DNA from: Sphingomonas mali NBRC 15500 | GTDB taxonomy: Bacteria > Pseudomonadota > Alphaproteobacteria > Sphingomonadales > Sphingomonadaceae | DNA length: 64,000 nt | Reading direction: 5' to 3' | Assembly (NCBI RefSeq): GCF_001598415.1 | Contig: NZ_BCYX01000004.1 | Span: forward strand, 124,001 to 188,000 | In this document: positions 49,327 through 64,000 of the stretch, piece after piece | Numbering within the stretch: the stretch's first letter is position 1 | Layout: each line of letters begins with the position of its first letter | The notes under the pieces: generated by a model | The model's database searches: none | Told to the model about the DNA's origin: nothing | What the model saw: the letters and a program-made list of their open reading frames with translations, nothing else | Position numbers and translations under genes: made by a program

Positions 49327-49641
49327 TCAATCCCGCGTCGCCGCCCTAATCAGGTCGGCCAGGACATCCACCTGCCGGATCGTCGGCGGCTCAGCGAGCA
49401 AAGCCTCGGCATGGTCCATAAGCGCGGCCGCGATCGGACCGTTCAGATGCGCCGCTCGACCGGTTTCGTCGGCAAAGCTATCGAAGATGCCGAACCGCTC
49501 CTCGTCGAAGCGCAACGCGAACCACACTAGGGTTTCGGGCTCGGCGGCGGCCGCCTCGCGTGCGCCTGCGAGGAAAGCAGCCACCTCCCCGCCCTTGCCC
49601 GGTCTGGCCTTCAACTCGACGAACAATCCGACACGATTCAT
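49327..49641 (-). CDS. Antibiotic biosynthesis monooxygenase (ABM)-family protein
   Basis: 104 residues with VGLFVELKARPGKGGEVAAFL at the start and VWFALRFDEERFGIFDSF in the middle, typical of the small dimeric ABM fold (YgiN-type). Its substrate may be quinols, but this is uncertain. ATG at 49641 has GAGGAG upstream. A GTAACC-N16-CGAA promoter lies about 110 bases upstream, placing it in the island regulon. Confidence 0.85.
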   Translation of the reverse strand: MNRVGLFVELKARPGKGGEVAAFLAGAREAAAAEPETLVWFALRFDEERFGIFDSFADETGRAAHLNGPIAAALMDHAEALLAEPPTIRQVDVLADLIRAATRD

Positions 49642-49752
49642 ACGCTATCTCCTCACCATCACGGTTCCCGCACCGCGGCCAACGCGATGACGACCAACGG
49701 GCGGCCATGACTGGCACCGGAACCGACCACGCAGAATACGCGGCACATGTAG

Positions 49753-49778
49753 TTCGTCCGCGATGTCGTGCCGGTTAC
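49753..49778 (-). promoter_or_regulatory. SigF-type promoter for the ABM gene
   Basis: On the minus strand GTAACC-N16-CGAA: GTAACC at 49778-49773 and CGAA at 49756-49753. It is 111 bases before the ATG at 49641 and is divergent from the ccdA promoter. I recall GTAACC-N16-CGAA as the SigF promoter of Caulobacter. Confidence 0.82.
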
Positions 49779-49817
49779 ATCGCGAGGGCTAGGAAAAGCC
49801 TCAGGCAGGAACGCGCT

Positions 49818-49843
49818 GTAACCACGCCGCCCGTTGCGGCGAA
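49818..49843 (+). promoter_or_regulatory. SigF-type promoter for ccdA
   Basis: GTAACC at 49818-49823, 16-base spacer, CGAA at 49840-49843, on the plus strand, 108 bases before the ccdA ATG. It supports the late ccdA start, since the in-frame extension to 49834 overlaps the promoter. Confidence 0.83.
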
Positions 49844-49950
49844 GACACCGTCACTACGGCCTTTTGCCGTCCCTGATAAAGATCGGTCCTCCTCGCCATG
49901 TCCCGTTCCTGTGCTTGCCCTTCTCCAGCCGCCGCCCGGCGTATCGGGCG

Positions 49951-50673
49951 ATGAGCGCGCTCAATCCGGTACTCGCCTTCGCAGCCGGCGCCCTCACCAT
50001 CCTGTCGCCGTGCGTGCTGCCCCTGGTTCCGATCGTCCTGGCGAGCGCGGCCCAGAAACACCGTCTGGCACCGCTCGCGCTGTCCGTCGGTCTCGTGGCA
50101 TCGTTCACGCTCACCGGGGTCCTGATCGCGGCGCTTGGCGCGACACTTGGCATCGACAGCGACCTGGTACGGCTGGCCGGGGCGGTCCTGCTCATCGTGA
50201 TCGGCCTCGTGCTCCTGGTGCCGCTTCTGCGTCGGCTCGGCGAGAGGGGGGCGGCACCGATCGCACGGTGGGCGGGCGAGCGTCAGGCGGCCCTCGAGCG
50301 GTTCGGTCTGGCAGGCCAGGCCGCGATCGGCGCGCTGCTCGGGCTCGTCTGGAGCCCCTGTGTCGGCCCGACCCTTGGCGCCGCGACCGTGCTCGCCGCC
50401 CAAGGGCGTGATCTTGGCGGCGTCCTCTTGGTCATGGCGTCCTTCGGACTCGGCATCGCCTCCGTCCTGCTCGCGCTGGCGCTCAGCGCGCGGACGCTCC
50501 TCAACCGCTGGCGCGGCCGTTTGATGGAGGCTGGCGACCGCGGCCGGAAGACACTCGGCGTCCTGGTCCTGCTCGTCGGGCTTATGATCGTCACCGGTGC
50601 CGACCATTGGGTCGAAGGCGTCGTCCTCGATACGGCACCGCCCTGGCTGACGAGCATCGCGACCTCCGTATGA
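49951..50673 (+). CDS. ccdA: CcdA-like cytochrome c biogenesis / thiol electron transfer membrane protein
   Basis: 240 residues, about six transmembrane segments. The redox cysteines are in ILSPCVLPLVPI in the first segment and VWSPCVGPTLGA near the middle. CcdA moves electrons from cytoplasmic thioredoxin to periplasmic thiol proteins. ATG at 49951 starts the typical MSALNPVLAF. A possible partner is the secreted thioredoxin-like protein at 56089. It precedes a sigma/NrsF pair and has its own SigF-type promoter. Confidence 0.9.
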   Translation: MSALNPVLAFAAGALTILSPCVLPLVPIVLASAAQKHRLAPLALSVGLVASFTLTGVLIAALGATLGIDSDLVRLAGAVLLIVIGLVLLVPLLRRLGERGAAPIARWAGERQAALERFGLAGQAAIGALLGLVWSPCVGPTLGAATVLAAQGRDLGGVLLVMASFGLGIASVLLALALSARTLLNRWRGRLMEAGDRGRKTLGVLVLLVGLMIVTGADHWVEGVVLDTAPPWLTSIATSV

Positions 50674-50704
50674 TCGCGCCAAGCCGAGATTTCCATGCGC
50701 ATGT

Positions 50705-50730
50705 GTAACCAAGCGCGCCGACCGCACGAA
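50705..50730 (+). promoter_or_regulatory. SigF-type promoter for the first sigma/NrsF pair
   Basis: GTAACC at 50705-50710, 16 bases, CGAA at 50727-50730. A transcript would begin near 50737, so the sigma gene cannot start at the ATG at 50695. Autoregulation of the sigma gene is implied. Confidence 0.85.
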
Positions 50731-50787
50731 TGGATGGGCGTGTCGCCAACTCCCCGCCCCCATCCGCCACGCCCGGCCGCCGAGATC

Positions 50788-51345
50788 GTGAGGCTGCACA
50801 CGACGCCCGCGGACGGGACCGAGGATGAATGGGGGGCGCTGATGGCGGCTGCGCACGCCGGCCATGCCGCCGCGTATCGACGCCTGCTCGACGACCTGCG
50901 CAAATGGCTCGGTCGCTTCTATGCCCGCCGCCTGCCCCCGAGCATGGTCGAAGACGCGGTCCAGGATACGCTTGTCGCGATCCATGAGAAGCGCCACACC
51001 TATGATCCGCAGCGCCCTTTCAAACCGTGGCTGATGGCGGTCGCGCGTTACAAATGGATCGATCGGCTGCGCGCGATGGGCCGGCATGGCACCGAGGCGT
51101 TGCCTGACGACATCGCGGTCGACGACCATGAGAGTAGCGTGACCAGCCAGGTCGTGCTGCAGCATCTCATGGCCGAGCTCAAGCCTGCCCAGGCCGAGGC
51201 GATCCGGCTCGTCAAGATCGAAGGCTATTCCGTCGCCGAGGCGTCCGCGCGGACTGGACAGTCGGACTCGCTGATCAAGGTCAACATCCATCGCGGCCTC
51301 GCCCGGCTCGCGGCCATCGTCCAGAGTCGGCCCGATGCCGAGTGA
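50788..51345 (+). CDS. sigF: ECF sigma factor, SigF-like, first copy
   Basis: 185 residues. Region 2 is visible in FYARRLPPSMVEDAVQDTLVAIHEKRHTYD and FKPWLMAVARYKWIDRLRA; region 4 in GYSVAEASARTGQSDSLIKVNIHRGLARL. The start is uncertain. A GTG at 50788 lies ten residues before TEDEW, which lines up with DEDEL of the second copy at 62892. The start must be downstream of the promoter at 50705. The stop overlaps the next gene by 11 bases. Confidence 0.88.
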   Translation: MRLHTTPADGTEDEWGALMAAAHAGHAAAYRRLLDDLRKWLGRFYARRLPPSMVEDAVQDTLVAIHEKRHTYDPQRPFKPWLMAVARYKWIDRLRAMGRHGTEALPDDIAVDDHESSVTSQVVLQHLMAELKPAQAEAIRLVKIEGYSVAEASARTGQSDSLIKVNIHRGLARLAAIVQSRPDAE

Positions 51346-51976
51346 TCTCCTGATTGACCGGCTGGTCGACGGCCTTCGCCCGACGCGCCGTCCCGCAACG
51401 CTGCGTCAGGGCGCGGTGCTTCTGGCGCTGGCGGGCGTCGAGCTGGCCGGCTTCCTGTCGCTCGGCACCCTTCGCCCCGATATCGCCACCGCGGCGGGGC
51501 TGTCCGTATTCTGGTGGAAGATGGGCGGCCTCGCGTCGCTGGCGCTCGCCGCCACGACCGTCGCACTACGCTCGTTCGACCCGCTGTCCTCGCCCAGGAG
51601 TGAGCTTCGGCGCTGGATGGCGGTGCTCGCCGGCGTGTTCGTGCTTGGCTGGGTCCTTGACGCCGGGAGCCAACCGGGACTGGGGCTCGGCGCGCGGCTG
51701 ATGTGGCAGATGGGGATCGAGTGCCTGACGGTCATGACGATCCTGTCGACCCCGCTCGTGCTCGCGCTGCTGCTGATGATGCGGCGGGGCGCCCCGACCG
51801 ACCTCGGCGCGAGCGCGACCGCGGCCGGCGCGGCGGCGGCAACCGCCGGCGCCTTCATCTTCGCCTTCCATTGCCCGAGTGACGACCCCTTCTACATCGT
51901 CTTCTGGTACACGCTTGGCTGCGGCGCGATCACGATGCTCTCGCGCGCGCTGCTCCCGCGTCTCGCGCGCTGGTAG
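51335..51976 (+). CDS. nrsF: NrsF-like (DUF1109) membrane anti-sigma factor, first copy
   Basis: 213 residues with about six transmembrane segments. Conserved cysteines are visible in MGIECLTVM and FAFHCPSDDP, the two positions that I recall as necessary for metal release in Caulobacter NrsF. It should bind the sigma factor whose gene it overlaps, and release it on heavy metal or thiol stress. Start ATG at 51335. Confidence 0.88.
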   Translation: MPSDLLIDRLVDGLRPTRRPATLRQGAVLLALAGVELAGFLSLGTLRPDIATAAGLSVFWWKMGGLASLALAATTVALRSFDPLSSPRSELRRWMAVLAGVFVLGWVLDAGSQPGLGLGARLMWQMGIECLTVMTILSTPLVLALLLMMRRGAPTDLGASATAAGAAAATAGAFIFAFHCPSDDPFYIVFWYTLGCGAITMLSRALLPRLARW

Positions 51977-52510: not shown

Positions 52511-52536
52511 TTCGTCAGCCTCTCGCCCCCGGTTAC
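52511..52536 (-). promoter_or_regulatory. SigF-type promoter for the 6-Cys precursor gene
   Basis: Minus strand GTAACC (52536-52531), 16 bases, CGAA (52514-52511). It is 50 bases from the ATG at 52461 and back-to-back with the promoter for the 4-Cys precursor. Confidence 0.86.
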
Positions 52537-52571
52537 AGCAGGCCGGGAAAACTCTTTTCGATGGTCACCCT

Positions 52572-52597
52572 GTAACCCGATCGGGCGCTCGAGCGGA
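52572..52597 (+). promoter_or_regulatory. SigF-type promoter for the bufA1-bufB1-bufC1-DoxX operon
   Basis: GTAACC at 52572-52577, 16 bases, then CGGA at 52594-52597, one base off the CGAA seen at other sites. It lies 102 bases before the ATG at 52699. Confidence 0.78.
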
Positions 52598-52698: not shown

Positions 52699-52977
52699 AT
52701 GAGCAACCGTGCAACCACCGCGCTCAGCACCCTGCTGCTCGCCTCGCTTGCCGCCGGCGCCGCCACTGCGGCCCATGCCCAGGCGAGCAAGCCGATGGAA
52801 AAATGCTACGGCATCGCCAAGGCCGGCAAGAACGACTGCAAGGCCGGGGCCGGCACGACCTGCGCCGGAACCTCGAAGGTCGATTATCAGAAGGACGCCT
52901 GGAAGCTCGTGCCGGCCGGCACCTGCGCCAAGATCAAAACACCCAAGGGCTATGGCTCCCTCACGCCCGGGGCGTGA
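52699..52977 (+). CDS. bufA1: DUF2282 bufferin precursor peptide, four Cys (BufA1)
   Basis: 92 residues: a signal peptide ending at AHAQ and a mature part with four cysteines, [19 protein letters not shown] and AGTC, the DUF2282 pattern. In Caulobacter these are substrates of a DUF692 enzyme, and the modified peptide binds copper. ATG at 52699 has AAAGGAGA upstream. It is the first gene of bufA1-bufB1-bufC1-doxX; the next gene follows after nine bases. Confidence 0.9.
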
Positions 52978-52986
52978 GAGGCGGCC

Positions 52987-53823
52987 ATGACCATGATGAC
53001 CGCAGGCCTGGGCTTCAAGCTCGAGCATCTCGACGAGGCGCTGACGGCGCGGGACCCGGGCCTGTGGTTCGAGGTCCATGCCGAGAACTACATGGTGGAC
53101 GGAGGTCCGCGGCTCAGGGCGCTCCAGGCGCTGGCCGAGCGCTTTCCGCTCTCTCTGCACGGCGTCGGCCTGTCGCTGGCGTCGGTCGAGCCGCCGCCGC
53201 ACGAGCACCTGCAGCGGCTGCGGCAGCTCGCCGACCTGATCGGCCCGGCGGCGATGTCGGACCATCTGGCCTGGCAGCGATGGGAGGGCGCCCATCACGC
53301 AGACTTCCTCCCGTTTCCGCGGACGCGCGAGGCGCTGGACATCACCGCCGGCAATGTCGCACGCGTGCAGGACGCGCTGGGCCGCCCGTTGATGGTCGAG
53401 AACCCGTCGCTTTATGTCGACCTGCCGGGCCATGAGCTCGACGAGGCCGACTTCCTGGCGGAACTCACCAGGCGCACCGGCTGCGGCCTGCTCGTCGACG
53501 TCAACAACATCTTCGTCAGCGCGTCTAACCTCCGCTTTTCGGCGGAAGCGCGGATCGACGCGATCCCCGGGTCGCTGGTCGGCGAAATCCACCTCGCCGG
53601 CCACCGCCCCGACCCTGATCCGGCCAGCGGCCTCCTCATCGACAGTCACGATGCGCCGGTATCCGATCCGGTATGGAGCCTCTACCGCCGGCTGATCGCG
53701 CGGATCGGCGCGCGCCCGACCCTGATCGAGCGCGATGACGACATCCCGGCTTTTGCCGAGTTGATGCTCGAGCGCGACCGCGCGCATCGCCTCTTAGACG
53801 AGCCGGTCAGCGCCGATGCTTGA
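52987..53823 (+). CDS. bufB1: DUF692 (MNIO) iron enzyme BufB1
   Basis: 278 residues, a TIM-barrel multinuclear non-heme iron oxidase. Likely metal ligands are visible in LHGVGLSL, MSDHLAW, VENPSLY, LVDVNNIFVS, EIHLAGH, DSHDAPVSD and LIERDDDIP. It should oxidise cysteines of the adjacent precursor BufA1. Start ATG at 52987. It overlaps bufC1 by eight bases. Confidence 0.92.
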   Translation: MTMMTAGLGFKLEHLDEALTARDPGLWFEVHAENYMVDGGPRLRALQALAERFPLSLHGVGLSLASVEPPPHEHLQRLRQLADLIGPAAMSDHLAWQRWEGAHHADFLPFPRTREALDITAGNVARVQDALGRPLMVENPSLYVDLPGHELDEADFLAELTRRTGCGLLVDVNNIFVSASNLRFSAEARIDAIPGSLVGEIHLAGHRPDPDPASGLLIDSHDAPVSDPVWSLYRRLIARIGARPTLIERDDDIPAFAELMLERDRAHRLLDEPVSADA

Positions 53824-54550
53824 CGCCCAGTCCTTCCAGCGGGCTTTCGCGGGCCTGCTCGCGGCGCCCGACAAGGCGCCTGACCCGGCGATCCGGCGAG
53901 CGCTGACGATCCACCGCAACACCGCGAGCAAGGCGGCGCGTGACGCGCTGCTCGCCAATTATCCGGTCACGGCGGCGCTGGTCGGCGAGGCGCCGTTCGC
54001 TGCCTGCGCCGCCTCCTATGTCGAGATGGCGCCCCCGCGCGAGGCGCGGCTGTGCTGCTATGGCGATCGCTTCGCGCCCTTCGTGGAGGCCTGGGTGCCG
54101 TTCGCCGAGGCGCCGTATCTCGGCGCCGTGGCGGCGCTCGAACGCCTGGTCACCGAAGCGCTGTTCGCGAAAGACATGGCGACGCTCGACCCGGCGGCGC
54201 TGACGGAAGGCATCGATACGGATGCGCGACTGCAGCGCCATCCGGCGACCCGCACCCTGCGAGCGGCAAGCCCGGCCGCGAGCCTGTGGCTCGCCCATCA
54301 GTCGGATGCTCATCCGGACGCGCTCGAGACCGTGCATTGGCGACCGGAGATCATCCTCGTCACCCGCCCGGCCGACGCGGTTGAGATCCGGGTGATCGAC
54401 CAGCCGACATACGCATTCCTCGCCGGTGCGACCCTCGCACGCGCCGCGGGGCATGCCGCCGCGGCCGGCGGCGACGTCGCGACCATCTTCGCCTCCCTCC
54501 TCATCGCCGGCGCCTTCGCCGCGCGCGCCTCCCAAGGAGCACGTCCATGA
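53816..54550 (+). CDS. bufC1: DUF2063 partner protein BufC1
   Basis: 244 residues. The N-terminal DUF2063 part shows [12 protein letters not shown] and [29 protein letters not shown]. It is the DNA-binding-like partner protein, thought to present the precursor to its DUF692 enzyme. It overlaps bufB1 by eight bases and the DoxX gene by four (ATGA), so the genes are coupled. Confidence 0.9.
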
Positions 54551-55011
54551 ATCCTTATGCTCGCCTGACCGCCCGGCTCGACCGCCTGCCCGGCTCGCTC
54601 CTCCTCCTGGTCGCCCGTCTCGGGGCGGCCGGGGTGTTCTTCATGTCGGGTCGGACCAAGGTCGATGGCATACTGCACATCACCGACAGCACCTATACGC
54701 TGTTCGAGACGGACTATCGGCTTCCGCTCATCCCGCCGCACCTCGCCGCCCATCTGGCGACCTATCAGGAGCACCTCTTCCCCATCCTCCTCGCGGTCGG
54801 TCTGTTCAACCGCGTGGCGGCCCTGGGCCTGCTGGGCATGACCGCGGTGATCGAGATCTTCGTCTATCCCGATGCCTGGCCCACGCATCTGAGCTGGGCC
54901 GGCCTGTTGCTGCCGATCATCCTGCGGGGTGGTGGGCGCTTCTCGCTCGACCATCTGCTCGGCCTCGACCCCGCCCATGGGGCAGGAGAGCGAGACTATG
55001 CAGCCGACTGA
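54547..55011 (+). CDS. bufD: DoxX-family membrane protein (BufD-like)
   Basis: 154 residues with four hydrophobic segments and the DoxX pattern [22 protein letters not shown] near the start. DoxX proteins accompany bufferin loci, where their role is unsettled. It is the last gene of the bufA1 operon, and its ATG overlaps the bufC1 stop (ATGA). Its end faces the metallopeptidase gene convergently after 103 bases. Confidence 0.85.
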
Positions 55012-55114: not shown

Positions 55115-56092
55115 CTATGGGGTGGTGATGCTGGCCCGCAGCCCGGCCAGCGGTGCCCTATCATCGAGCAGGACGCCGCCGCCTGCCCCCCGGACGCCGA
55201 GTTCCCCGACGAGCGCGGCCAGATCCGGGGCGACGCGCTCGGTGGCGAAACAGGCATAGAGACGGCCAACCGATCCGGTGCCGTTCGCGGCATCGGCCGT
55301 GGCTACGAGCCGCTCGGGGGACCAGGTCACCGCATTCCCGCCACTCGCGCGATTGACGTGCCGCAGCGCATTACGGAGCGATCCTTTGCCATTGGTCTCG
55401 CGGTAGATGGCGATCTCAACGAGCAGCCAGAAAAGGGCGCCGCCCCAATATAGCCGGCCCCACGCACGCGTTCCGTCCATGCCGACCTCACCGCCGTCGG
55501 GCAGGCCCTTGGGTATGCCGTCGACCGCTTCGCGCCACATCTCGGCCGGGGCGAGACGACCGACCAGCGCCCTGGCGATCGGCTCGACATAGGTCGCGTT
55601 GCCTTCCTGCAGCCAAAGCGCTCGTCGCGGGAGGTCGGGAAGCGCGATGTGGACCATCTCGTGGACGAGCACCCAGTCGAGGTCGAACGCGGCTCGGTCG
55701 GCCTCGGTGCCGACGCGGATCCGTGTCACGGCGCCGCCCTCGCCGAAGGTGGTCGCGTGGCCGACATGGCGGCCAGGCTCGGCGACCACGAGCAGGGCGT
55801 GATCGGGCACTGGATAGCGGCCGAAATAGGTGCTGACTGCGCGCGCCGACGCGTGAATCCAGGCCTGGACCAGCGCCCGGTCGAGGCCCGGCGCGCCATC
55901 GGCTATCACCAGCCTGATATACCCTCCATCGACCGCCAGCCTCTCCACTGGCTGGCGGTCGAATGCCGCGCGGATATCGTCCAGCGCCTCATAAAGGGGC
56001 GCGACCCCGGATGCGCCGAGCGACGCGCCGGCCACGGCCAATGCGCCGACCCCTGCGAGGACGGCGCGGCGATCCGGTCCCGCGCGGCTCAC
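55115..56092 (-). CDS. Secreted gluzincin-type metallopeptidase
   Basis: 325 residues. The N-terminus RRAVLAGVGALAVAG looks like a Tat or Sec signal. The zinc motif HEMVHIALP is near residue 145, with a downstream EGNATYVEP as likely third ligand, a gluzincin layout. The rest is unassigned. A GTG start at 56092 overlaps the stop of the thioredoxin-like gene (GTGA), so they are coupled. Substrate unknown; it is the last gene of a minus-strand operon. Confidence 0.78.
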   Translation of the reverse strand: MSRAGPDRRAVLAGVGALAVAGASLGASGVAPLYEALDDIRAAFDRQPVERLAVDGGYIRLVIADGAPGLDRALVQAWIHASARAVSTYFGRYPVPDHALLVVAEPGRHVGHATTFGEGGAVTRIRVGTEADRAAFDLDWVLVHEMVHIALPDLPRRALWLQEGNATYVEPIARALVGRLAPAEMWREAVDGIPKGLPDGGEVGMDGTRAWGRLYWGGALFWLLVEIAIYRETNGKGSLRNALRHVNRASGGNAVTWSPERLVATADAANGTGSVGRLYACFATERVAPDLAALVGELGVRGAGGGVLLDDRAPLAGLRASITTP

Positions 56093-56475
56093 CGCAGCGG
56101 GGCGGCCGCAAAGGTCTTGAGCTGGGCAGGATCGGTCACGCCGACGCTGCGGCCGACCTCGCGGTTGCCCTTGAAGGCGATGAGGGTGCTCTGCTGGGTA
56201 ATGCCCAGAGCCTTTTTCTCGGCTTTCTGATGGTCATAGTCGAGCCGCAGGATCACCAGCTTGCGATAGTCAGGATCGGTCGCGAGCCGGTCGATCGTCG
56301 GCGCCTGCGCGCGGCACGTCGGGCACCAGGGTGCAAAGGCGTCGACCAGCACGGGCTGGCCGGCGGCCTGGGCGGCCTTGAGCGCGGCGAGGCTGAATGG
56401 TCGCACAGGCTGGGCCTGGACCGGAGCTGCGAGGAACGCGAGCGCGGTGAGCGGCAGGAGGCGGAAAGGAGACAT
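56089..56475 (-). CDS. Secreted thioredoxin-like protein
   Basis: 128 residues with a signal peptide (LLPLTALAFLAAPVQAQ). The redox motif APWCPTCRAQAPT is near residue 49 and the later IAFKGNREVGRSVG fits the thioredoxin fold. It should act on periplasmic disulfides, perhaps fed by CcdA. ATG at 56475 gives the signal peptide; the frame is open to 56505. It overlaps the peptidase gene by four bases. Confidence 0.85.
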   Translation of the reverse strand: MSPFRLLPLTALAFLAAPVQAQPVRPFSLAALKAAQAAGQPVLVDAFAPWCPTCRAQAPTIDRLATDPDYRKLVILRLDYDHQKAEKKALGITQQSTLIAFKGNREVGRSVGVTDPAQLKTFAAAPLR

Positions 56476-56552
56476 GATGAAGATCCTTGATGAGGCGGCG
56501 TTCACGAAGCGGGGGTGCGGCTATTCGGGCGGGTGCCGCGCCCGATTGCGAC

Positions 56553-57281: not shown

Positions 57282-57295
57282 CGATCGTCTCCCCG

Positions 57296-57433
57296 TCAAG
57301 CGCCGGTGACCGCGGCCGACACCGCGCCAGCCAGCGAGAACGTACCGATCGCCAGCATGACAAGGAGCGCGCCGCCGGCCCCCAGGAAGGGGAGCGCCGC
57401 GGTGAGACCGGAGCCTCTGGGTGAATGGGGCAT
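57296..57433 (-). CDS. Small membrane protein, 45 residues, first gene of the DUF1223 operon
   Basis: A short gene at the head of the operon. It begins MPHSPRGSG and has a hydrophobic body of about 32 residues that forms one or two transmembrane segments. It ends 14 bases before the DUF1223 ATG. It lies under a perfect SigF-type promoter, so it is probably expressed with the rest. No family was recognised. Confidence 0.65.
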   Translation of the reverse strand: MPHSPRGSGLTAALPFLGAGGALLVMLAIGTFSLAGAVSAAVTGA

Positions 57434-57471
57434 GGTGGATACCTTCGCGTTAGAGGAAGCCATGCCCGTAG

Positions 57472-57497
57472 TTCGCCCCGCCCCCGCTCCGGGTTAC
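57472..57497 (-). promoter_or_regulatory. SigF-type promoter for the small membrane protein/DUF1223/Trx/peptidase operon
   Basis: Minus strand GTAACC (57497-57492), 16 bases, CGAA (57475-57472), 38 bases before the ATG at 57433. It is just downstream of the nitrilase stop. Confidence 0.85.
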
Positions 57498-57533: not shown

Positions 57534-58481
57534 CTAGGTGCGGTGGCGCATATCGATCTGCAGATCGAAAATGTCCGGCCGTGCATAATGGCCTGCGGTG
57601 TCGAGATAGAGGCGGCCCTCCGGCAGCAGCGCAAGGTCGACCTCCGCGGTGAGGTTGGCGGCGTCGCCTGGCTCGGCGATCACGATCAGGCCGGTGTCCG
57701 GCCCGACGATCGCGCTCCCGCCAGCTTTGAGCTGGTGTGGGTCCACCGGAATGGCCTCGAGCATCTCGCGCGCAACCCGAGCCTCTATGCCGAGGCTGTC
57801 AAAGCCCTCGAGCACGTCCGTCCGCGACAGCACGGTGCCCGCCGCCGCGACGTAGCATTGGCCCTCAAAGGCATAATGCCGGCTGGCCAGGAGATGCAGA
57901 TCGGTGACCGCCGGCCAGAGCGCGAAATGGATCACCTCCCCGAGTCTGTGCCGCGCCGCCCGGGCGAGCGGCATCCAATGCTCCCAGCAGATCAGCGCGC
58001 CCATCGGCCCGTGCGGTGTCTGCCAGGCGCCGAGCGTGCTGCCGTCGGCCGCCGCCCAGATCAGGCGCTCATTATGGGTCGGCATGAGCTTGCGATGCAC
58101 GTCGCGCTGGCCGTCCGCGCCCAGCCGGACCACGCTGTTGAACAGGCTGGCGGATCGCCGCTCCTGTAGGCCCATGACCACATCGACCGACAGCTCCTGC
58201 GCGACCTGCCCGAGGCGGGCGATCTCCGGGCCGTCAAGCTCGGGGCAATTCTCGAACAGCACGCGAAACAGGCGTTCGGCGGGCTTGTGCCCCCAGAGTG
58301 CCGCGCCGGGCGCCGCGTCGAGCCATACCGGATAGCCGGGAAGCCATGTCTCCGGGAAGACGATGATCCGCGCACCGTCGCCCGCGGCCTCGCGGATCAG
58401 ATCCTCCGCGCGCGCGACGCTCGCGGCCAGATTGAGGAAGACCGGCGGGCGCTGCACGATCGTGATCACCATCTTCGACAT
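57534..58481 (-). CDS. Nitrilase / carbon-nitrogen hydrolase
   Basis: 315 residues of the CN-hydrolase superfamily. The Glu-Lys-Cys triad is in FPETWLPGYPVW (E near 43), HRKLMPTHNER (K near 130) and GALICWEHWMPL (C near 164). The CWEHW sequence and length fit true nitrilases that make carboxylic acid and ammonia from nitriles; cyanide or aliphatic substrates cannot be told apart. It has its own SigF-type promoter upstream. Confidence 0.9.
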   Translation of the reverse strand: MSKMVITIVQRPPVFLNLAASVARAEDLIREAAGDGARIIVFPETWLPGYPVWLDAAPGAALWGHKPAERLFRVLFENCPELDGPEIARLGQVAQELSVDVVMGLQERRSASLFNSVVRLGADGQRDVHRKLMPTHNERLIWAAADGSTLGAWQTPHGPMGALICWEHWMPLARAARHRLGEVIHFALWPAVTDLHLLASRHYAFEGQCYVAAAGTVLSRTDVLEGFDSLGIEARVAREMLEAIPVDPHQLKAGGSAIVGPDTGLIVIAEPGDAANLTAEVDLALLPEGRLYLDTAGHYARPDIFDLQIDMRHRT

Positions 58482-58504: not shown

Positions 58505-58530
58505 TTCGGCGCGGCCATGCCCGCAGTTAC
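58505..58530 (-). promoter_or_regulatory. SigF-type promoter for the nitrilase gene
   Basis: Minus strand GTAACT (58530-58525), 16 bases, CGAA (58508-58505), with one change in the first element, 23 bases before the ATG at 58481. It is divergent from the promoter at 58553. Confidence 0.75.
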
Positions 58531-58552
58531 AGGCTCACCGCGTTTTTTGAGC

Positions 58553-58578
58553 GTAACCAAATGCCTTCCGGGCGCGAA
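58553..58578 (+). promoter_or_regulatory. SigF-type promoter for the orphan NrsF-like gene
   Basis: GTAACC at 58553-58558, 16 bases, CGAA at 58575-58578, 58 bases before the ATG at 58637. Confidence 0.84.
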
Positions 58579-58636: not shown

Positions 58637-59284
58637 ATGAAGACCGAGGTATTGATTTCGCAATTGTCGCAGGATGTGCAGCCGGTTCCCAGGGAAACGC
58701 TGCCCCGCTTGCTGCGTGCAGGGCTGGTCGCCGGTGGCGGCGCCGCCCTGTTTTTTGTCCTGGTCGCACCCGCGCTCGGCGTGCGCGCCGATCTCGGCGT
58801 GGCGGCGATGACGGCCTCCTTCTGGATCAAGCTTCTCTATACCGTGTCAATCGCCGGCCTGGCCTTCACGGCGCTCGAGCGGTTGAGCCGCCCCGGCGGG
58901 CCGGCCTTCTCCTGGATGGGCTTGTTATGGCCCCCGGTCACAGCCCTTGCGGCGATCGCGGCCATGACCTGGCGGCTGCTTCCCGGGGCCGAGGCCGAGA
59001 CATTCTGGATGGGGTCGAGCTCCTGGCAATGCCTGGTTTTCGTGACGGCCCTGGCAGTACCCGTGTTCGCCGGCCTTGTCTGGGCGCTGTCGCAACTCGC
59101 GCCGACCCGGCTGCGTGCAGCGGGCGCCGCTGCCGGGCTCGTTGCCGGGGCGACGAGCGCCAGTGTTTATGCGCTACACTGCGCCGAAACATCGCCTGGG
59201 TTCGTCCTGCTCTGGTATTCGCTCGCGCTGGCCGTCGCCGCGCTGTTGGGGGCAGCGCTCGGACCCCGGCTTCTGCGCTGGTGA
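58637..59284 (+). CDS. NrsF-like (DUF1109) membrane protein without a sigma partner
   Basis: 215 residues with about six hydrophobic segments. The conserved cysteine positions are present in SSWQCLVFV and YALHCAETSP. There is no sigma gene next to it; it has its own SigF-type promoter. It may add to or compete with the other NrsF copies for the two sigma factors. ATG at 58637 fits the family; the frame is open to 58517. Confidence 0.85.
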   Translation: MKTEVLISQLSQDVQPVPRETLPRLLRAGLVAGGGAALFFVLVAPALGVRADLGVAAMTASFWIKLLYTVSIAGLAFTALERLSRPGGPAFSWMGLLWPPVTALAAIAAMTWRLLPGAEAETFWMGSSSWQCLVFVTALAVPVFAGLVWALSQLAPTRLRAAGAAAGLVAGATSASVYALHCAETSPGFVLLWYSLALAVAALLGAALGPRLLRW

Positions 59285-59318: not shown

Positions 59319-59344
59319 GTAACCGCACCGCCCTTTCCTGCGAA
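59319..59344 (+). promoter_or_regulatory. SigF-type promoter for bufB2-bufC2-GST-SDR
   Basis: GTAACC at 59319-59324, 16 bases, CGAA at 59341-59344, 66 bases before the GTG at 59411. It lies between the NrsF-like gene and bufB2. Confidence 0.85.
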
Positions 59345-59410: not shown

Positions 59411-60253
59411 GTGCCGCCCAAGACGATCACGCCGTTCCAGGGCTTCGGGCTCGGCCTCCGGATCCCACACTTCCAGCAGTATCTGAGCGAGCCCGTGCCC
59501 GTCGATTTCGTTGAGATCATCTCGGAGAACTTCATGGTCGCCGGCGGCCGGCCGCTTCATGTCCTCGACCAGGTCCGCGAGCGCTGGCCCATCGCCATGC
59601 ACGGCGTGTCCATGTCGATCGGATCCGCTGACGGCGTCCGGGCCGATTATCTCGTTCGCCTGAAGGCGCTCGCCGACCGGGTCCGTCCCTTGTGGATCTC
59701 TGATCATTTGAGCTGGTCGCGGCTGGAGCATGTGAACTCGCACGACCTGCTTCCCTTGCCGCTCACCGACGAGGCGCTCGACACGGTCTGCCGCAACATC
59801 CTTCACGTGCAGGATGTGCTCGAGCGGCCGCTGGTGCTCGAGAATCCCTCAACCTATCTCACCTTCGTCGATGACCAGATGACCGAATGGGCGTTCCTTG
59901 CCGAGATGACGCGGCGCACCGGCTGCTATCTGCTTCTCGACGTCAACAACATCTATGTGAGCGGCGCCAATAACGGCTTCGACCCCTATGACTATCTCGC
60001 CGGCGTGCCCGCCGACCGCGTGCGCCAAATCCATCTCGCCGGGCACAGCCAGGGGCGCGACCGATTGATCGACACCCATGACCAGCCCGTATCCGACCCC
60101 GTATGGGACCTGTTCGCCCGGATCTACCCTCGGCTCGGGCCGGTGGCGGCGATGATCGAGCGCGACGACAATATCCCGGCACTCGACGCGCTGCTCGAAG
60201 AACTCGCCATCGCCCGCCGCATCGCCGCCAACGTGACGGCCGCCGCCGCATGA
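59411..60253 (+). CDS. bufB2: DUF692 (MNIO) iron enzyme BufB2
   Basis: 280 residues; the same ligand pattern as BufB1 (MHGVSMSIG, ISDHLSW, VLENPSTY, LLDVNNIYVSG, QIHLAGHSQ, DTHDQPVSD, MIERDDNIP). GTG start at 59411 with AAGGAG upstream. No precursor gene lies next to it; the 6-Cys peptide at 52186 or BufA1 could be its substrate in trans. It overlaps bufC2 by four bases. Confidence 0.9.
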   Translation: MPPKTITPFQGFGLGLRIPHFQQYLSEPVPVDFVEIISENFMVAGGRPLHVLDQVRERWPIAMHGVSMSIGSADGVRADYLVRLKALADRVRPLWISDHLSWSRLEHVNSHDLLPLPLTDEALDTVCRNILHVQDVLERPLVLENPSTYLTFVDDQMTEWAFLAEMTRRTGCYLLLDVNNIYVSGANNGFDPYDYLAGVPADRVRQIHLAGHSQGRDRLIDTHDQPVSDPVWDLFARIYPRLGPVAAMIERDDNIPALDALLEELAIARRIAANVTAAAA

Positions 60254-60996
60254 CGCTGGCCGAACTGCAGCGCGGCTTTCTCGACCTTCTGCTCGATCCG
60301 TCGCGCGACCCGGGGACCGCATTCGACGCCGATGGCGCGGCCGGGCTCGCCGTCTATCGCAACGCCTATGGCGCGCAGCTGGTCGCCTGCCTCAAGGACA
60401 GTTACGAGCGGCTATGGGCCTGGCTCGGCGACGAGCGTTTCGAGGCCGCCGCGTACCATCATGTCGCCGGGCATCCGCCGGCGAGCTGGACCCTGGGCGA
60501 GTACGGCATCGGTTTCGCCGAGACGATCGCCGGCCTTTACCCGGACGATCCGGAGGTTGCCGAGATCGCCGCGCTCGACTGGGCGCTGCGGCGGGCGTTC
60601 GACGGGCCGGACGCGTCGGTGCTGGATCCGGCCTCGCTTGTAGCGATCGACTGGGACGAGGCCGTGCTGCGCTTCGTGCCTACGCTCGACCTGCTCCCGG
60701 TCCATACGAATTGCGGCGCAATCTGGACCGCGATCGCCGGCGGCGAGACGGTGCCGGCCGCCGAGCATCTTCCTCAGCCCGGCTGGATCCGGGTCTGGCG
60801 CGTCGGCCTTCAGCCGCATTTCGCGACGATCGAGACCGAGGAGTTGGCCGCGCTGCAGCTCGCCACCTCCGGCATGAGTTTTGCCCGGCTCTGCGACCGC
60901 CTGGCCGGAGAGATCGGGGTCGAGGCGGCGGTCGAGAAAGCGGGCCAATATCTGGCCGTCTGGCTGCAGGACCAGATGATCGCCGAAATCGCATGA
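60250..60996 (+). CDS. bufC2: DUF2063 partner protein BufC2
   Basis: 248 residues. The N-terminal DUF2063 part shows LQRGFLDLLLDP and LAVYRNAYGAQLVACLKDSYERLWAWLG. Partner of BufB2. ATG at 60250 overlaps the BufB2 stop (ATGA). It resembles BufC1 in layout but is clearly diverged, consistent with a second modification system. Confidence 0.88.
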   Translation: MTLAELQRGFLDLLLDPSRDPGTAFDADGAAGLAVYRNAYGAQLVACLKDSYERLWAWLGDERFEAAAYHHVAGHPPASWTLGEYGIGFAETIAGLYPDDPEVAEIAALDWALRRAFDGPDASVLDPASLVAIDWDEAVLRFVPTLDLLPVHTNCGAIWTAIAGGETVPAAEHLPQPGWIRVWRVGLQPHFATIETEELAALQLATSGMSFARLCDRLAGEIGVEAAVEKAGQYLAVWLQDQMIAEIA

Positions 60997-61021
60997 CCAT
61001 CACCTCGAGGAGAGCAGAACC

Positions 61022-61723
61022 ATGATCCGCTTCTACTTCCACCCCACCCCCAATCCGCTCAAGGTTGCCTTGCTTCTGGAAGAGCTCGGTCTCGATTATG
61101 AGGTCGTGCCGGTCGATACGAGCAAGGGCGAGCAGCATCTGCCGTCCTTTCGTGCGGTGAACCCCAATGGCAAGGTGCCCGCGATCGTCGACACCGACGG
61201 CCCGGGCGGCGAAACGCGTGTGTTCGATTCCACCGCGATCCTCCTGTACCTCGCCGAGAAGCACGGCGCCTTTCTCGGCGCGGAGGCCGATCGCGGTGAG
61301 CTTGTGTCGTGGCTGTTCTTCATCGCGTCGGGGCTCGGCCCTTTCTCGGGGCAGGCGGTGCATTTCCAGCGGATGGCGCCGGCAGGGCTCGATTACGCGG
61401 TCAATCGCTATCGCCGCGAAGCGGAGCGGCACTATCAGGTCCTCGAAGATCATCTCGCCGGCCGCGCTTTCCTCGTCGGCGAAACCTACAGCATCGCCGA
61501 CATGGCGGCCTGGGGATGGATCGAGCGGGCGCGATTCGTCCTGCCGGGCGCCGACGATCCACTCGCCGCCTACCCCAACATCAAGCGCTGGCACGCCGAG
61601 GTCAGCGCACGGCCGGCGGTCGAGCGGGCGCGACGCGTGGGTAGCGACCATGCATTCAAGCGCGAGATCGACGAGGAGACCAAGCGAGCCCTTTTCCCCT
61701 CCAACTATCCGGCGCAGGCCTGA
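61022..61723 (+). CDS. Glutathione S-transferase family protein
   Basis: 233 residues. The thioredoxin-like N-terminal part runs FYFHPTPNPLKVALLLEELGLDYE with VPAIVDTDGPGG, DSTAILLYLAEKHG and the C-terminal helical part with LVGETYSIADMAAWGWIERA. This is YghU-like GST. It probably detoxifies electrophiles or reduces disulfides with glutathione. It is 25 bases after bufC2 in one operon. Confidence 0.9.
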   Translation: MIRFYFHPTPNPLKVALLLEELGLDYEVVPVDTSKGEQHLPSFRAVNPNGKVPAIVDTDGPGGETRVFDSTAILLYLAEKHGAFLGAEADRGELVSWLFFIASGLGPFSGQAVHFQRMAPAGLDYAVNRYRREAERHYQVLEDHLAGRAFLVGETYSIADMAAWGWIERARFVLPGADDPLAAYPNIKRWHAEVSARPAVERARRVGSDHAFKREIDEETKRALFPSNYPAQA

Positions 61724-61733
61724 GGAGGCGTTC

Positions 61734-62540
61734 ATGGAGATCAAAGGCAAACGGATCCTGATCACCGGTGGCTCCAGCGGGATCGGACTGGCGATGGCAC
61801 ACGTCCTCGCCGCGCGCGGCGCACAGCTCTTCCTGACCGGGCGCAGGGCGGACGCAGTCAGGGCTGCGGTCGCCGAGCTCGGCCGGGTCACCACCCACGT
61901 CGCCGGCACGGCCGCCGATGTCGGCACCGAGGAGGGCCGTGCCACCACGCTGGCGAGCGCGATCGCTGCGATGGGAGGGCTCGACATCCTCGTCAACAAC
62001 GCGGGCGCCGTCCGCGCGGGCCGGCTCGAGCACATCGCGGAGGATGAGATCCGGACCATGATCGAGGTCGATCTGGTCGCCCCGATCCTGCTGACGCGCG
62101 CGGCGCTGCCTGCGCTGCGCGCCGATGGTGGAGGGATGGTCGTCAATGTCACGTCGGCGATCGCACTCGTCGCCATGCCCTTCTACGCGACCTATGCGGC
62201 GGCCAAGGCGGGGCTCGCGAGTTTTGGCGAAGCGCTGCGCCGCGAACTCAAGGGCGAAGGCGTGCATGTGCTGACGGCGTATCCGAGCGGCACCGACACA
62301 CCGATGATGGCCACGAGCCGGGCTGGTCCCGAGATCGGCTTCTCGCTGGAGCCGGCCGCAGCGGTCGCGGAGGCCATTGTCGACGGCATCGCCGCGGACG
62401 CGATCTCGGTGGTGCGAGGCGGTCCCGAGCGTCAAGCGATGATCGGGCTCAACCGTGACGACCCGGCGGCGCTGGACGACCGCTTCCTGGCGATCAAGCC
62501 CGCTTTCGAAAAGGGTGTATCCTCCCACCGCGCGCTATGA
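61734..62540 (+). CDS. Short-chain dehydrogenase/reductase
   Basis: 268 residues. Rossmann motif TGGSSGIG near residue 12, NNAG motif near residue 87, catalytic Ser-Tyr-Lys in VTSAIALVAMPFYATYAAAK. NAD(P)-dependent oxidoreductase of unknown substrate. ATG at 61734 follows GAGGAG. It is the last gene of the bufB2 operon, ten bases after the GST stop. Confidence 0.9.
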   Translation: MEIKGKRILITGGSSGIGLAMAHVLAARGAQLFLTGRRADAVRAAVAELGRVTTHVAGTAADVGTEEGRATTLASAIAAMGGLDILVNNAGAVRAGRLEHIAEDEIRTMIEVDLVAPILLTRAALPALRADGGGMVVNVTSAIALVAMPFYATYAAAKAGLASFGEALRRELKGEGVHVLTAYPSGTDTPMMATSRAGPEIGFSLEPAAAVAEAIVDGIAADAISVVRGGPERQAMIGLNRDDPAALDDRFLAIKPAFEKGVSSHRAL

Positions 62541-62710
62541 TCCGGCGCCGGGATGCGCCCCGAAGGCCAGGAAGCAGCACTCGTGGGCAACGACATCGGA
62601 CCGATCGACGGCCTCCTCGGAACACCGAGCGCACCATGACGCCCCTCCTCGGCAAGAACGCTCGTCTTCAGGGTGCCTGGATTGCCTTCGCCGCGCGCTC
62701 CTGACAGGGG

Positions 62711-62744
62711 TGCGCGGCCCGGATGAGGACGGCCGGGCCGCGCA
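62711..62744. terminator. Hairpin downstream of the SDR gene
   Basis: An 11-bp perfect stem (TGCGCGGCCCG with CGGGCCGCGCA) around a 12-base loop, no T run. It could stop the bufB2 operon or the minus-strand transcript from the promoter at 62788. The rest of 62541-62787 holds no gene that I can support. Confidence 0.5.
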
Positions 62745-62787
62745 GTGACCGGGAGAAGGAGGGCAAGTCCCGCATCACAGTCGTGAT

Positions 62788-62813
62788 TTCGGTCGGCATC
62801 CGCTTCAGGTTAC
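62788..62813 (-). promoter_or_regulatory. SigF-type promoter with no clear gene downstream
   Basis: Minus strand GTAACC (62813-62808), 16 bases, CGAA (62791-62788). Its transcript would run toward the end of the SDR gene. Only very small frames lie there: a 35-codon frame from the ATG at 62775, without Shine-Dalgarno, and a 47-codon Arg-rich frame near 62637 with a GAGGAGG sequence. A small RNA is also possible. Confidence 0.6.
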
Positions 62814-62844
62814 AGGGACGATCAGGAATATTTCGATCGTGGGT

Positions 62845-62870
62845 GTAACCGCGGCGGTGGCCATGCCGAA
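62845..62870 (+). promoter_or_regulatory. SigF-type promoter for the second sigma/NrsF pair
   Basis: GTAACC at 62845-62850, 16 bases, CGAA at 62867-62870, 22 bases before the ATG at 62892. Confidence 0.85.
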
Positions 62871-62891
62871 CTCCGGATGCGAGGAGTGCAG

Positions 62892-63434
62892 ATGCGGGCG
62901 GACGAGGATGAGTTGCGCAGCTTGATGATCGGTGGGCTGGACGGCGATGCCGCCGCCCACGCCGCTCTACTGCGCCTGCTCGTGCCGCTGCTGCGCGGCT
63001 TCTACCGTCGCAGGGCGCGCGGTGACGACGACGATATTGAGGATCTGGTGCAGGAAACGCTGATGGCGGTGCATGGACGCCGCGCCACCTATGACCGCGA
63101 CCGCCCGTTCACCGGCTGGCTGTTCGCGATCGCCCGCTACAAGATGATCGATCATTTCCGCCGTAAACGCCGGCTCCAGCCGATCGATGGACTGGAGGAC
63201 GAGCTCGTCGCGCGCGACTTCGAGGCGCCAATCAGCGCGGAGATGGACGTCGCCGCCTTGCTCGGCACCCTGCCGCCGAAACAGGCGCACGTGATCCGCG
63301 CGACGCGGATCGATGGCCTGAGTGTCGCCGAGGCAGCGGCGGCCGCAGGCGGGCTTGGCGAGTCCGATGTGAAGGTCTCGGTCCATCGCGGCCTCAAAGC
63401 GCTGATCGCGCGCGTGCAGGGGGAGGTTCGATGA
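62892..63434 (+). CDS. ECF sigma factor, SigF-like, second copy
   Basis: 180 residues. Region 2 (FYRRRARGDDDDIEDLVQETLMAVHGRRATYD, FTGWLFAIARYKMIDHFRR) and region 4 (GLSVAEAAAAAGGLGESDVKVSVHRGLKAL) are clear. ATG at 62892 follows GAGGAG and lies just after the promoter. It is similar in plan to the sigma factor at 50788. It overlaps the NrsF gene by four bases (ATGA). Confidence 0.9.
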   Translation: MRADEDELRSLMIGGLDGDAAAHAALLRLLVPLLRGFYRRRARGDDDDIEDLVQETLMAVHGRRATYDRDRPFTGWLFAIARYKMIDHFRRKRRLQPIDGLEDELVARDFEAPISAEMDVAALLGTLPPKQAHVIRATRIDGLSVAEAAAAAGGLGESDVKVSVHRGLKALIARVQGEVR

Positions 63435-64000
63435 CCACGGACGACCTGATCGCGCAGCTCTCGGGCACCGTCGCTCCCGTATCGCGCCGGGCTGTCGGCG
63501 AACGTCTCGCCCGGGGCCTTCTCCTGGGCGCGATCGTCTCGGCCGCCGTGATGGCCGCAGGCCTCGGCCTGCGTCCCGATCTCGGCGCGGCTATCCACGG
63601 CTCCATCTTCTGGATGAAGGCCGCTTACACGATGTCGCTCGCGGCACTCGCCTTGACCGCGACCCGCCAGCTCGCGCGGCCGGACGCCGGGTCGATCCGC
63701 TGGCTATGGCTGGCGACCCTGCCCGTCCTCCTCCTCGCCGTGGTCGGCGTGGCCGACCTGAGCGGCGCGCCGTCGTCCGCCTGGCTCGCACTTTGGCTGG
63801 GCAAGAGCTGGCGGATCTGCCCCTGGCTGATCCTCGCCCTTTCCGTGCCGGTGTTTCTCGGCCTGCTCTGGTCGTTCCGCTCGCTGGCACCGACTCGGCT
63901 GAGGGCGACGGGCGCCACCGCCGGCCTGGCATCGGGCGCATTCGCTGCCACGATCTATTGCCTGCACTGCCCGGAGGCGTCCGCGATGTTCGTGCTCACC
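63431..64000 (+). CDS. NrsF-like (DUF1109) anti-sigma factor, second copy, cut by the window edge
   Basis: At least 190 residues present, with several transmembrane segments. The cysteine positions are in WRICPWL and YCLHCPEAS. Its ATG overlaps the sigma stop. The 3' end is beyond the window. Partner of the sigma factor at 62892. Confidence 0.88.
   Translation, partial: MTTDDLIAQLSGTVAPVSRRAVGERLARGLLLGAIVSAAVMAAGLGLRPDLGAAIHGSIFWMKAAYTMSLAALALTATRQLARPDAGSIRWLWLATLPVLLLAVVGVADLSGAPSSAWLALWLGKSWRICPWLILALSVPVFLGLLWSFRSLAPTRLRATGATAGLASGAFAATIYCLHCPEASAMFVLT

What the first reader, a model, noticed from the sequence alone, without database searches (positions are those of the whole stretch)
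49327..64000. Eleven SigF-type promoters with a constant 16-base spacer define one regulon island
Nine exact GTAACC-N16-CGAA sites and two with a single change stand in 14 kb: 49753(-), 49818(+), 50705(+), 52511(-), 52572(+), 57472(-), 58505(-), 58553(+), 59319(+), 62788(-), 62845(+). Ten point at the first gene of a transcription unit, and I noticed none with this spacer elsewhere in the window. This matches the Caulobacter SigF promoter as I recall it. The island gathers both sigma genes and their apparent regulon in one place.
Basis: partly seen in the sequence, partly recalled or inferred. Interest (0 to 1): 0.9.

Follow-up and report, generated by a model that had tools for sequence, protein, structure and literature searches.

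The report
Two-sigma copper-stress promoter island
A 14 kb stretch of a bacterial genome holds two related stress-response switches and a dense set of matching 'on' signals in front of genes for copper-binding peptides and sulfur-repair proteins; the signals are of a known kind, but the number packed together and the wiring are unusual.

Summary
Confirmed. Nine exact GTAACC-N16-CGAA sites and two with one change lie where stated. The genome (5.23 Mb) has 12 exact sites, 9 of them within 13.1 kb. Only spacer 16 is enriched, in the window and in 80 related loci (128 sites at 16; 0-5 at each other spacing 11-21). Against a congener's six orthologous promoters the cores are kept (58/60) and the spacers are not (31/96). 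These are ECF16 (Caulobacter SigF-type) promoters; published consensus (T/C)GTAAC-N17-CGAA (PMC8315932). Each of two ECF sigma genes precedes an NrsF anti-sigma gene and a third, orphan NrsF lies between; the genome search found no others. Targets: two bufferin (copper RiPP) systems and thiol-redox genes. Correction: the regulon is not all in one place; an exact site on another contig precedes an MsrPQ-like pair. Unusual: two old sigma/NrsF lineages plus an orphan NrsF under one promoter code, and a Buf2 precursor about 7 kb from its likely maturase. No transcript data; which sigma reads which site is unknown.

The parts
49753..49778 (-). ECF16-type promoter, exact; before the 104-aa frame 49327-49641 (-)
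   Evidence: gene weak (PF03992 13.0 bits, below the cut-off 23.1)
49818..49843 (+). ECF16-type promoter, exact; before CcdA/DsbD-like gene
49951..50673 (+). CcdA/DsbD-like membrane thiol-reductant transporter
   Evidence: PF02683 57.6 bits
50705..50730 (+). ECF16-type promoter, exact; before SigA
   Evidence: conserved in G022
50788..51345 (+). ECF sigma factor, here SigA; start codon uncertain (GTG 50788 chosen)
   Evidence: Sigma70_r2 and r4_2; TIGR02937 60.2 bits, above its cut-off 42.9
51335..51976 (+). NrsF-family anti-sigma, here NrsA
   Evidence: PF06532 125.1 bits, cut-off 26.8; C130 and C180
52186..52461 (-). BufA2 bufferin precursor, no maturase gene beside it
   Evidence: NF050166 101.9 bits, cut-off 60
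52511..52536 (-). ECF16-type promoter, exact; before BufA2
   Evidence: conserved in G022
52572..52597 (+). ECF16-type promoter, CGGA instead of CGAA; before Buf1 operon
   Evidence: G022 has CGAA there
52699..55011 (+). Buf1 operon: BufA1 (DUF2282), BufB1 (MNIO), BufC1 (DUF2063), DoxX
   Evidence: PF10048 93.6, PF05114 318.6, PF09836 55.6, PF07681 59.2 bits; BufB1 342 bits, cut-off 310
55115..57299 (-). DUF1223, thioredoxin-like and an unassigned protein, transcribed leftward
   Evidence: PF06764 188.2 and PF00085 50.1 bits; 55115-56092 no family
57472..57497 (-). ECF16-type promoter, exact; before DUF1223 unit
   Evidence: site before DUF1223 in G022
57534..58481 (-). Nitrilase-like carbon-nitrogen hydrolase
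   Evidence: PF00795 128.8 bits; Nit6803 model 148.7 bits, below its cut-off 502.6
58505..58530 (-). ECF16-type promoter, GTAACT; before nitrilase-like gene
   Evidence: fits the group consensus
58553..58578 (+). ECF16-type promoter, exact; before orphan NrsF
   Evidence: conserved in G022
58637..59284 (+). NrsF-family anti-sigma without a sigma gene beside it, here NrsO
   Evidence: PF06532 197.3 bits; tree: only G022's orphan is close
59319..59344 (+). ECF16-type promoter, exact; between NrsO and BufB2
   Evidence: conserved in G022
59411..60996 (+). BufB2 (MNIO) and BufC2 (DUF2063), Buf2-type, no precursor gene beside them
   Evidence: NF050167 368 bits, cut-off 310; PF09836 64.2; Buf2-type by comparison
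61022..62540 (+). Glutathione S-transferase and short-chain dehydrogenase downstream of BufC2
   Evidence: PF02798, PF00106
62788..62813 (-). ECF16-type promoter, exact; no convincing gene downstream
62845..62870 (+). ECF16-type promoter, exact; before SigB
62892..63434 (+). ECF sigma factor, here SigB
   Evidence: Sigma70_r2 57.2 bits (frame from 62877); NF009191 177.5 bits, cut-off 171
63431..64000 (+). NrsF-family anti-sigma, here NrsB, cut by the window end (continues on the contig as L016:32-673)
   Evidence: PF06532 199.6 bits for the part in the window; 241.6 bits whole

Best explanation
An ECF16 (Caulobacter SigF-type) stress regulon concentrated in one accessory island. Inferred working: membrane anti-sigmas NrsA, NrsB and probably NrsO hold SigA and SigB; copper or oxidant stress acting at their two conserved cysteines frees the sigmas; RNA polymerase then uses the TGTAACC-N16-CGAA promoters, including those of both sigma operons (feedback). 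The output is two copper-binding bufferin systems (Buf1, Buf2) and periplasmic thiol proteins (CcdA, thioredoxin, DUF1223), plus an MsrPQ-like repair pair elsewhere in the genome. Because the promoters share one core, the two sigmas most likely read overlapping sets. Shown here: the sites, their conservation, the families and the gene partners. Inferred: transcription, the inducer, which sigma uses which site, and what NrsO does.
For: 9 of 12 exact genome sites in 13.1 kb. Only spacer 16 enriched. Core 58/60 and preceding base 6/6 kept against spacer 31/96, upstream 32/84, downstream 39/96 in six orthologous promoters of G022. In 108 loci 121 of 144 exact sites have an island-family gene within 400 bp downstream; sites with at most one change precede 43/43 BufA2, 55/58 BufA1, 76/111 sigma, 15/21 cytochrome b561, 14/27 DUF1223, 8/10 thioredoxin, but 0/58 BufC, 0/22 MsrP-like and 0/13 CcdA, which are mostly later genes of operons. 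Sigma-NrsF gene pairs with both conserved cysteines. Same motif and same core targets proven in Caulobacter, whose regulon is induced by copper (PMC3511200, PMC8224329).
Against: No transcript data. 21 of 80 named loci and 17 of 20 class-wide loci have no exact site, so the exact motif is not universal for NrsF loci. 23 of 144 sites have no island-family gene downstream. 62788(-) has no believable target. The CcdA, nitrilase, GST, SDR and ABM-like genes have little or no promoter support from relatives (0/13, 0/1, 0/5, 1/36; ABM-like query had no row). The NCBIfam equivalog for Caulobacter NrsF is not reached by any of the three.
Confidence: 0.85

Rival explanations
1. The promoters are real but split between the sigmas: SigA serves one set of genes and SigB another, told apart by features outside the two core elements, and each NrsF holds only its neighbour.
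For: SigA/NrsA and SigB/NrsB are old, separate lineages, each next to its own NrsF. Three SigA-clade sigma genes in congeners have GTGACC instead of GTAACC upstream (L038, L039, L040), so the SigA clade can differ.
Against: Both sigma genes here carry the same exact motif, and I saw no distinguishing feature among the 11 sites beyond the shared T or C before GTAAC. L107 has a frame-split SigA with an NrsB-type anti-sigma and no SigB beside it.
Confidence: 0.3
2. Only one of the two sigmas is active and the other, with the orphan NrsF, is a relic of cluster merging.
For: The three NrsF come from separate lineages, as expected if clusters were brought together; NrsF is patchy, in 8 of 36 congeners.
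Against: All three NrsF and both sigmas have open frames with conserved key residues, and the orphan is also kept in G022 with its own promoter. Two sigma lineages side by side recur in L102.
Confidence: 0.15
3. The paired, divergent GGTTAC...GTAACC elements are operators for a repressor, not sigma promoters.
For: Four divergent pairs in the window have 22-39 bases between the GTAAC elements (from the coordinates); gaps in other loci often fall at 31-36.
Against: Several sites stand alone, the CGAA element at a fixed distance is always part of the motif, and the same motif is a mapped promoter in Caulobacter.
Confidence: 0.03
4. Chance occurrence of a short motif.
For: Genome-wide, exact hits outside the island (3) are below the reversed control (9) and one-mismatch hits (202 against 272) too.
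Against: Clustering (P about 4e-21), intergenic placement and conserved cores with diverged spacers.
Confidence: 0.01

Closest known systems
Caulobacter crescentus SigF-NrsF regulon, ECF16 prototype (PMC3511200, PMC8224329)
   Same: Promoter GTAACC-N16-CGAA; NrsF with two key cysteines; DUF2282-DUF692-DUF2063-DoxX target operon next to sigF; second bufferin-type operon; an MsrP-type target elsewhere; induction by copper, chromate and cadmium there.
   Different: Here two sigma lineages, three NrsF (one orphan), 11 promoters in 13.1 kb, added CcdA, thioredoxin, DUF1223 and nitrilase-like genes, and a split Buf2 pair. Inducer unknown here.
Sinorhizobium meliloti RpoE7-EcfR7 (ECF16; PMC6180224)
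   Same: Sigma/anti-sigma operon divergent from a DUF692-DUF2063 operon, with ECF16 motifs before both.
   Different: One sigma and two promoter motifs; tested inducers (H2O2, Cd, chromate) gave no induction there.
Bradyrhizobium japonicum EcfF-OsrA and EcfS-TmrS (ECF16; PMC3420878)
   Same: Two ECF16 paralogues in one genome with hints of cross-talk; targets include peptide methionine sulfoxide reductases and a putative cytochrome c biogenesis protein; cysteines 129 and 179 of OsrA.
   Different: Motif there GTAAC(g,a)-N14-15-(c,t)CG(t,a), not N16; the passages that I read do not describe one shared island.
Bufferin (captophorin) biosynthesis, Buf1 and Buf2 (PMC12452194, PMC13097082)
   Same: BufA1 and BufA2 precursors, MNIO BufB, DUF2063 BufC, DoxX.
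   Different: [quoted passage not shown] here BufB2-BufC2 follow an NrsF, and 38 of 43 BufA2 genes in loci chosen for NrsF lie directly behind NrsF. The precursor here is about 7 kb from its likely maturase.

Membership tests
ECF16 (SigF-type) sigma system | ECF sigma with regions 2 and 4 only | tested here: met
   Sigma70_r2 and Sigma70_r4_2 in both
ECF16 (SigF-type) sigma system | Six-helix DUF1109/NrsF anti-sigma gene directly after the sigma gene | tested here: met
   PF06532 above cut-off for all three NrsF; SigA-NrsA and SigB-NrsB overlap by a few bases; helices were not predicted
ECF16 (SigF-type) sigma system | Two conserved NrsF cysteines | tested here: met
   C130 and C180 invariant in 12 aligned NrsF, including all three here
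ECF16 (SigF-type) sigma system | Promoter (T/C)GTAAC-N17-CGAA | tested here: met
   10 of 11 island sites fit; 52572 has CGGA
ECF16 (SigF-type) sigma system | Sigma gene preceded by its own promoter motif | tested here: met
   50705(+) and 62845(+)
Caulobacter NrsF equivalog (NF042994) | Score above the curated cut-off of 300 bits | tested here: not met
   46.7, 115 and 123.1 bits (the last for the window part of NrsB); so family members, not filed as that equivalog
ECF16 (SigF-type) sigma system | Induction by copper, chromate, cadmium or oxidants | not testable with these tools
   no expression data
Buf1 bufferin system | DUF2282 precursor, MNIO, DUF2063 and DoxX genes in a row | tested here: met
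   52699-55011
Buf2 bufferin system | BufA2 precursor above the curated cut-off | tested here: met
   101.9 bits, cut-off 60
Buf2 bufferin system | Buf2-type maturase adjacent to the precursor | tested here: not met
   BufB2 is Buf2-type but about 7 kb from BufA2; so it works like a Buf2 pathway but is not an ordinary Buf2 cluster

The most novel reading that the evidence does not exclude
One promoter code is shared by two anciently diverged ECF16 sigmas and policed by three NrsF lineages; the orphan NrsO, itself driven by the shared promoter, is a trans-acting second brake or sensor on sigmas encoded kilobases away; and the same code, rather than an operon, holds together a Buf2 pathway whose precursor and maturase have been split apart.
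Probability: 0.4. Interest if true: 0.62.

Novelty: new variant of a known kind. Interest (0 to 1): 0.45.

Why it matters
It turns a set of poorly named genes into one readable copper and thiol-stress regulon. It gives a natural test case for cross-talk between paralogous sigma factors that share a promoter, and for an orphan membrane anti-sigma. It shows that Buf2 genes in Sphingomonadales can lie next to ECF16 genes, against the one survey statement that I read (PMC12452194, section 14). DUF1223, thioredoxin and cytochrome b561 genes emerge as recurrent partners of ECF16 promoters in the loci examined.

Tried and rejected
Sites outside the island: C32:35262(-) and C33:2086(+) are exact but lie in open frames with no convincing gene start behind them; I treat them as chance. 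One-mismatch sites genome-wide are at or below control (only the first 100 or so places were listed). The group-consensus hits on C8, C18 and C20 were not examined. 64090(+) (C4:188090, GTAACG) lies in a hairpin-like palindrome just after nrsB; a DoxX-family gene starts 198 bases on; weak.

Target of 62788(-): a 35-aa frame and a GC-rich hairpin were considered; the stretch folds no better than shuffles (z -0.25); no RNA or gene is claimed. In five relatives the gene in that position looks like a thiolase (my reading of the sequences, no family search); here nothing similar was seen.

Small membrane frame before DUF1223 (45-55 aa, minus strand below 57472): no Pfam match (shortest form), not seen before DUF1223 in G022; not claimed.

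Spacing of divergent pairs: suggestive of preferred gaps, but the loci are related. Structure prediction was not used: a single-chain model would not tell which anti-sigma binds which sigma.

Limits and rows dropped. The 80 named loci are the best 80 of 262 relatives and were chosen by an NrsB-type query; the 20 class-wide regions come from 20 of the 87 genomes with a match. So the fractions hold for NrsF loci only. The 'at most one change' sites allow a change only in the last base of GTAACC or the last two of CGAA. One search left out short homologues and those with an internal stop. Of four NrsF flagged as without an adjacent sigma, L107 and L122 have a broken or shortened sigma homologue nearby and L172 is a 29%-identity match; only L033 resembles NrsO. 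BufB1 is not a clean mirror image of BufB2: it scores 181-457 bits against BufA1-type and 184-244 against BufA2-type MNIOs. The Nrs tree's bootstrap had not settled and several branches are long; the Sig tree is a quick one.

Full report
Observation. In the window, spacers 10-23 give nine exact matches at 16, one at 20 and none at other lengths. In the whole genome (G000, 5.23 Mb, 108 contigs) the exact pattern occurs 12 times, the reversed control 9 times, and 9 of the 12 fall in 13.1 kb of contig C4; the Poisson P at the control rate is about 4e-21. With the gene starts I chose, 11 of 11 sites are wholly intergenic where 13.8% of the DNA is. Ten of 11 carry T before GTAAC and one carries C. 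The published ECF16 consensus is (T/C)GTAAC-N17-CGAA (PMC8315932, passages); it has 18 hits in the genome, 10 of them among the island's 11 sites, control 13. With one mismatch allowed in the exact motif the genome shows 202 hits against 272 for the control, so weak sites outside the island carry no weight alone.

Genes. Two ECF sigmas, here SigA (50788-51345) and SigB (62892-63434), each precede an NrsF-family gene. A third NrsF (NrsO, 58637-59284) has no sigma beside it. The genome search found these three NrsF and no other, and no other sigma close to these two (next best 60 bits against 247 and 278). Cysteines 130 and 180 are invariant in 12 aligned NrsF, including these three; they correspond in position to Caulobacter C131 and C181, whose replacement releases SigF (PMC3511200, abstract, sections). 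None of the three reaches the NCBIfam cut-off for the Caulobacter NrsF equivalog. The Buf1 operon (52699-55011) has DUF2282, MNIO, DUF2063 and DoxX genes. BufA2 (52186-52461, minus) and BufB2-BufC2 (59411-60996) belong to a second bufferin type. CcdA-like, thioredoxin-like, DUF1223, nitrilase-like, GST and SDR genes complete the set.

Conservation. A congener, G022, has a related island: SigA-NrsA, bufA2 divergent from buf1, NrsO, bufB2-bufC2, with sites before these units. In six orthologous promoters the core letters agree 58/60, the base before GTAACC 6/6, the spacer 31/96, the upstream DNA 32/84 and the downstream DNA 39/96. In 80 named loci fetched with an NrsB-type alignment (the best 80 of 262), spacing 16 has 128 exact sites, each other spacing from 11 to 21 has 0-5, and the reversed pattern has 3 at 16 (1 at 15, 8 at 17); 21 of the 80 have no exact site. 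In 20 class-wide loci the exact motif is rare: 6 sites, reversed 3, none in 17 of 20; so the exact form is clade-specific. In 108 loci 121 of 144 exact sites have an island-family gene within 400 bp downstream, 23 do not. Sites with at most one change precede 43/43 BufA2, 55/58 BufA1, 76/111 sigma, 15/21 cytochrome b561, 14/27 DUF1223 and 8/10 thioredoxin genes, but 5/107 NrsF, 3/56 DoxX, 1/36 SDR, 0/58 BufC, 0/22 MsrP-like, 0/13 CcdA and 0/5 GST. The highest exact count in the other loci was 6 (G022), against 9 here.

The regulon is not wholly in the island. C50:22999(+) is an exact site; an ATG at the tenth base after it opens a cytochrome b561 gene (PF01292, 91.6 bits) followed by a molybdopterin oxidoreductase (PF00174, 111.2 bits). 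In Caulobacter an MsrPQ-like pair is a SigF target induced by copper (PMC8224329, passages). C4:193649(-), which fits the group consensus but not the exact motif, lies about 12 nt before a gene that I read as a TonB-dependent receptor (no family search). The left edge of the island coincides with a rise in GC from about 0.59-0.63 to 0.67-0.70; on the right GC stays 0.64-0.69, so no sharp right border. NrsF is present in 8 of 36 congeners searched, so this is accessory DNA.

Wiring. The three NrsF are separate old lineages: NrsA groups with NrsF of four congeners, NrsO only with G022's orphan, NrsB with the main Sphingomonadales group (bootstrap not settled, long branches present). SigA and SigB have different nearest relatives (quick tree). 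NrsF occurs once in 101 of 108 loci, twice in 2 and at no full length in 5. Two sigma lineages side by side recur in L102 (SigA without NrsA, plus SigB-NrsB); L107 has a frame-split SigA, an NrsB without an adjacent SigB, and a 35%-identity sigma fragment farther off. That makes cross-control plausible but does not show it. In Bradyrhizobium, loss of one ECF16 anti-sigma raised expression of the paralogous sigma gene 3.8-fold (PMC3420878, passages).

Split Buf2. BufB2 scores 298-380 bits against 41 MNIOs next to BufA2 and 171-229 against 15 next to BufA1. It matches 19 of 22 Buf2-diagnostic columns, BufB1 3 of 22. It has Asp at 253 beside the likely catalytic Asp 252, as 38 of 41 Buf2-type MNIOs do, in line with PMC13097082 (section 14); BufB1 has the same two letters, so this residue alone does not discriminate. 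Its partner is therefore most likely the BufA2 gene about 7 kb away. Of 43 other BufA2 genes only G022's lacks an adjacent BufB, and 38 lie directly behind an NrsF gene; ten of those 38 were checked and all pass the curated BufA2 model. [quoted passage not shown] My loci were chosen for NrsF, so this proves occurrence, not frequency.

Literature. Papers seen: PMC3511200 (abstract, sections 6, 7, 8, 12), PMC12452194 (abstract, passages, section 14), PMC13097082 (passages, section 14), PMC8224329, PMC8315932, PMC6180224 and PMC3420878 (passages). Eight searches, on bufferins, SigF/NrsF, MNIO/DUF692, ECF16/DUF1109, DUF1223 and phrases for an orphan or second NrsF, listed no paper whose title or shown abstract describes a two-sigma, three-NrsF ECF16 island. 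The library holds only openly licensed papers, so this is weak evidence of absence.

Verdict. A strongly supported ECF16 regulon island of a known kind with an unusual build; interest moderate.

Noticed in passing
L019:1500-3096 (genome contig C50:22999 onward): Exact SigF-type site just before a cytochrome b561 plus molybdopterin oxidoreductase pair, outside the island; 15 of 21 cytochrome b561 homologues in the related loci also have a site with at most one change upstream.
   Followed up: yes
L016:6250-6275 (C4:193649-193674, minus; about 5.6 kb beyond the window): Site fitting the ECF16 group consensus (GTAACG) about 12 nt before a gene that looks like a TonB-dependent receptor.
   Followed up: partly
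window 49753-49843, 52511-52597, 58505-58578, 62788-62870: Four back-to-back divergent promoter pairs with 22-39 bases between the GTAAC elements; in 36 exact or CGGA pairs over all loci the gaps bunch at 31-36 and again near 45 and 68, perhaps helical phasing, confounded by relatedness.
   Followed up: partly
L038:10130, L039:10386, L040:10848: Three SigA-clade sigma genes in congeners have GTGACC-N16-CGAA, not GTAACC, upstream, and no bufferin genes were found beside them.
   Followed up: no
window 55115-56092 (-): Protein without a family match that carries an HExxH motif (HEMVH), possibly a secreted zinc peptidase (my reading); a homologue lies behind a one-mismatch site in G022.
   Followed up: no
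L122:8694, L124:9351, L125:2334, L127:2357, L140:9342 (all minus): In five relatives the site divergent from the sigma gene faces a gene that looks like a thiolase (my reading of the sequences); in the window the corresponding site 62788(-) faces no gene.
   Followed up: no
window 57303-57463 (-): Small frame of 45-55 aa with one hydrophobic stretch between the 57472(-) site and DUF1223, its first ATG only 8 nt after CGAA; not seen in G022.
   Followed up: partly
window about 49000: GC content rises from about 0.59-0.63 to 0.67-0.70 at the left edge of the promoter island; no tRNA lies there.
   Followed up: partly
L155:9242-9267 (+): Exact site before a gene that looks like a methionine sulfoxide reductase A (my reading).
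   Followed up: no
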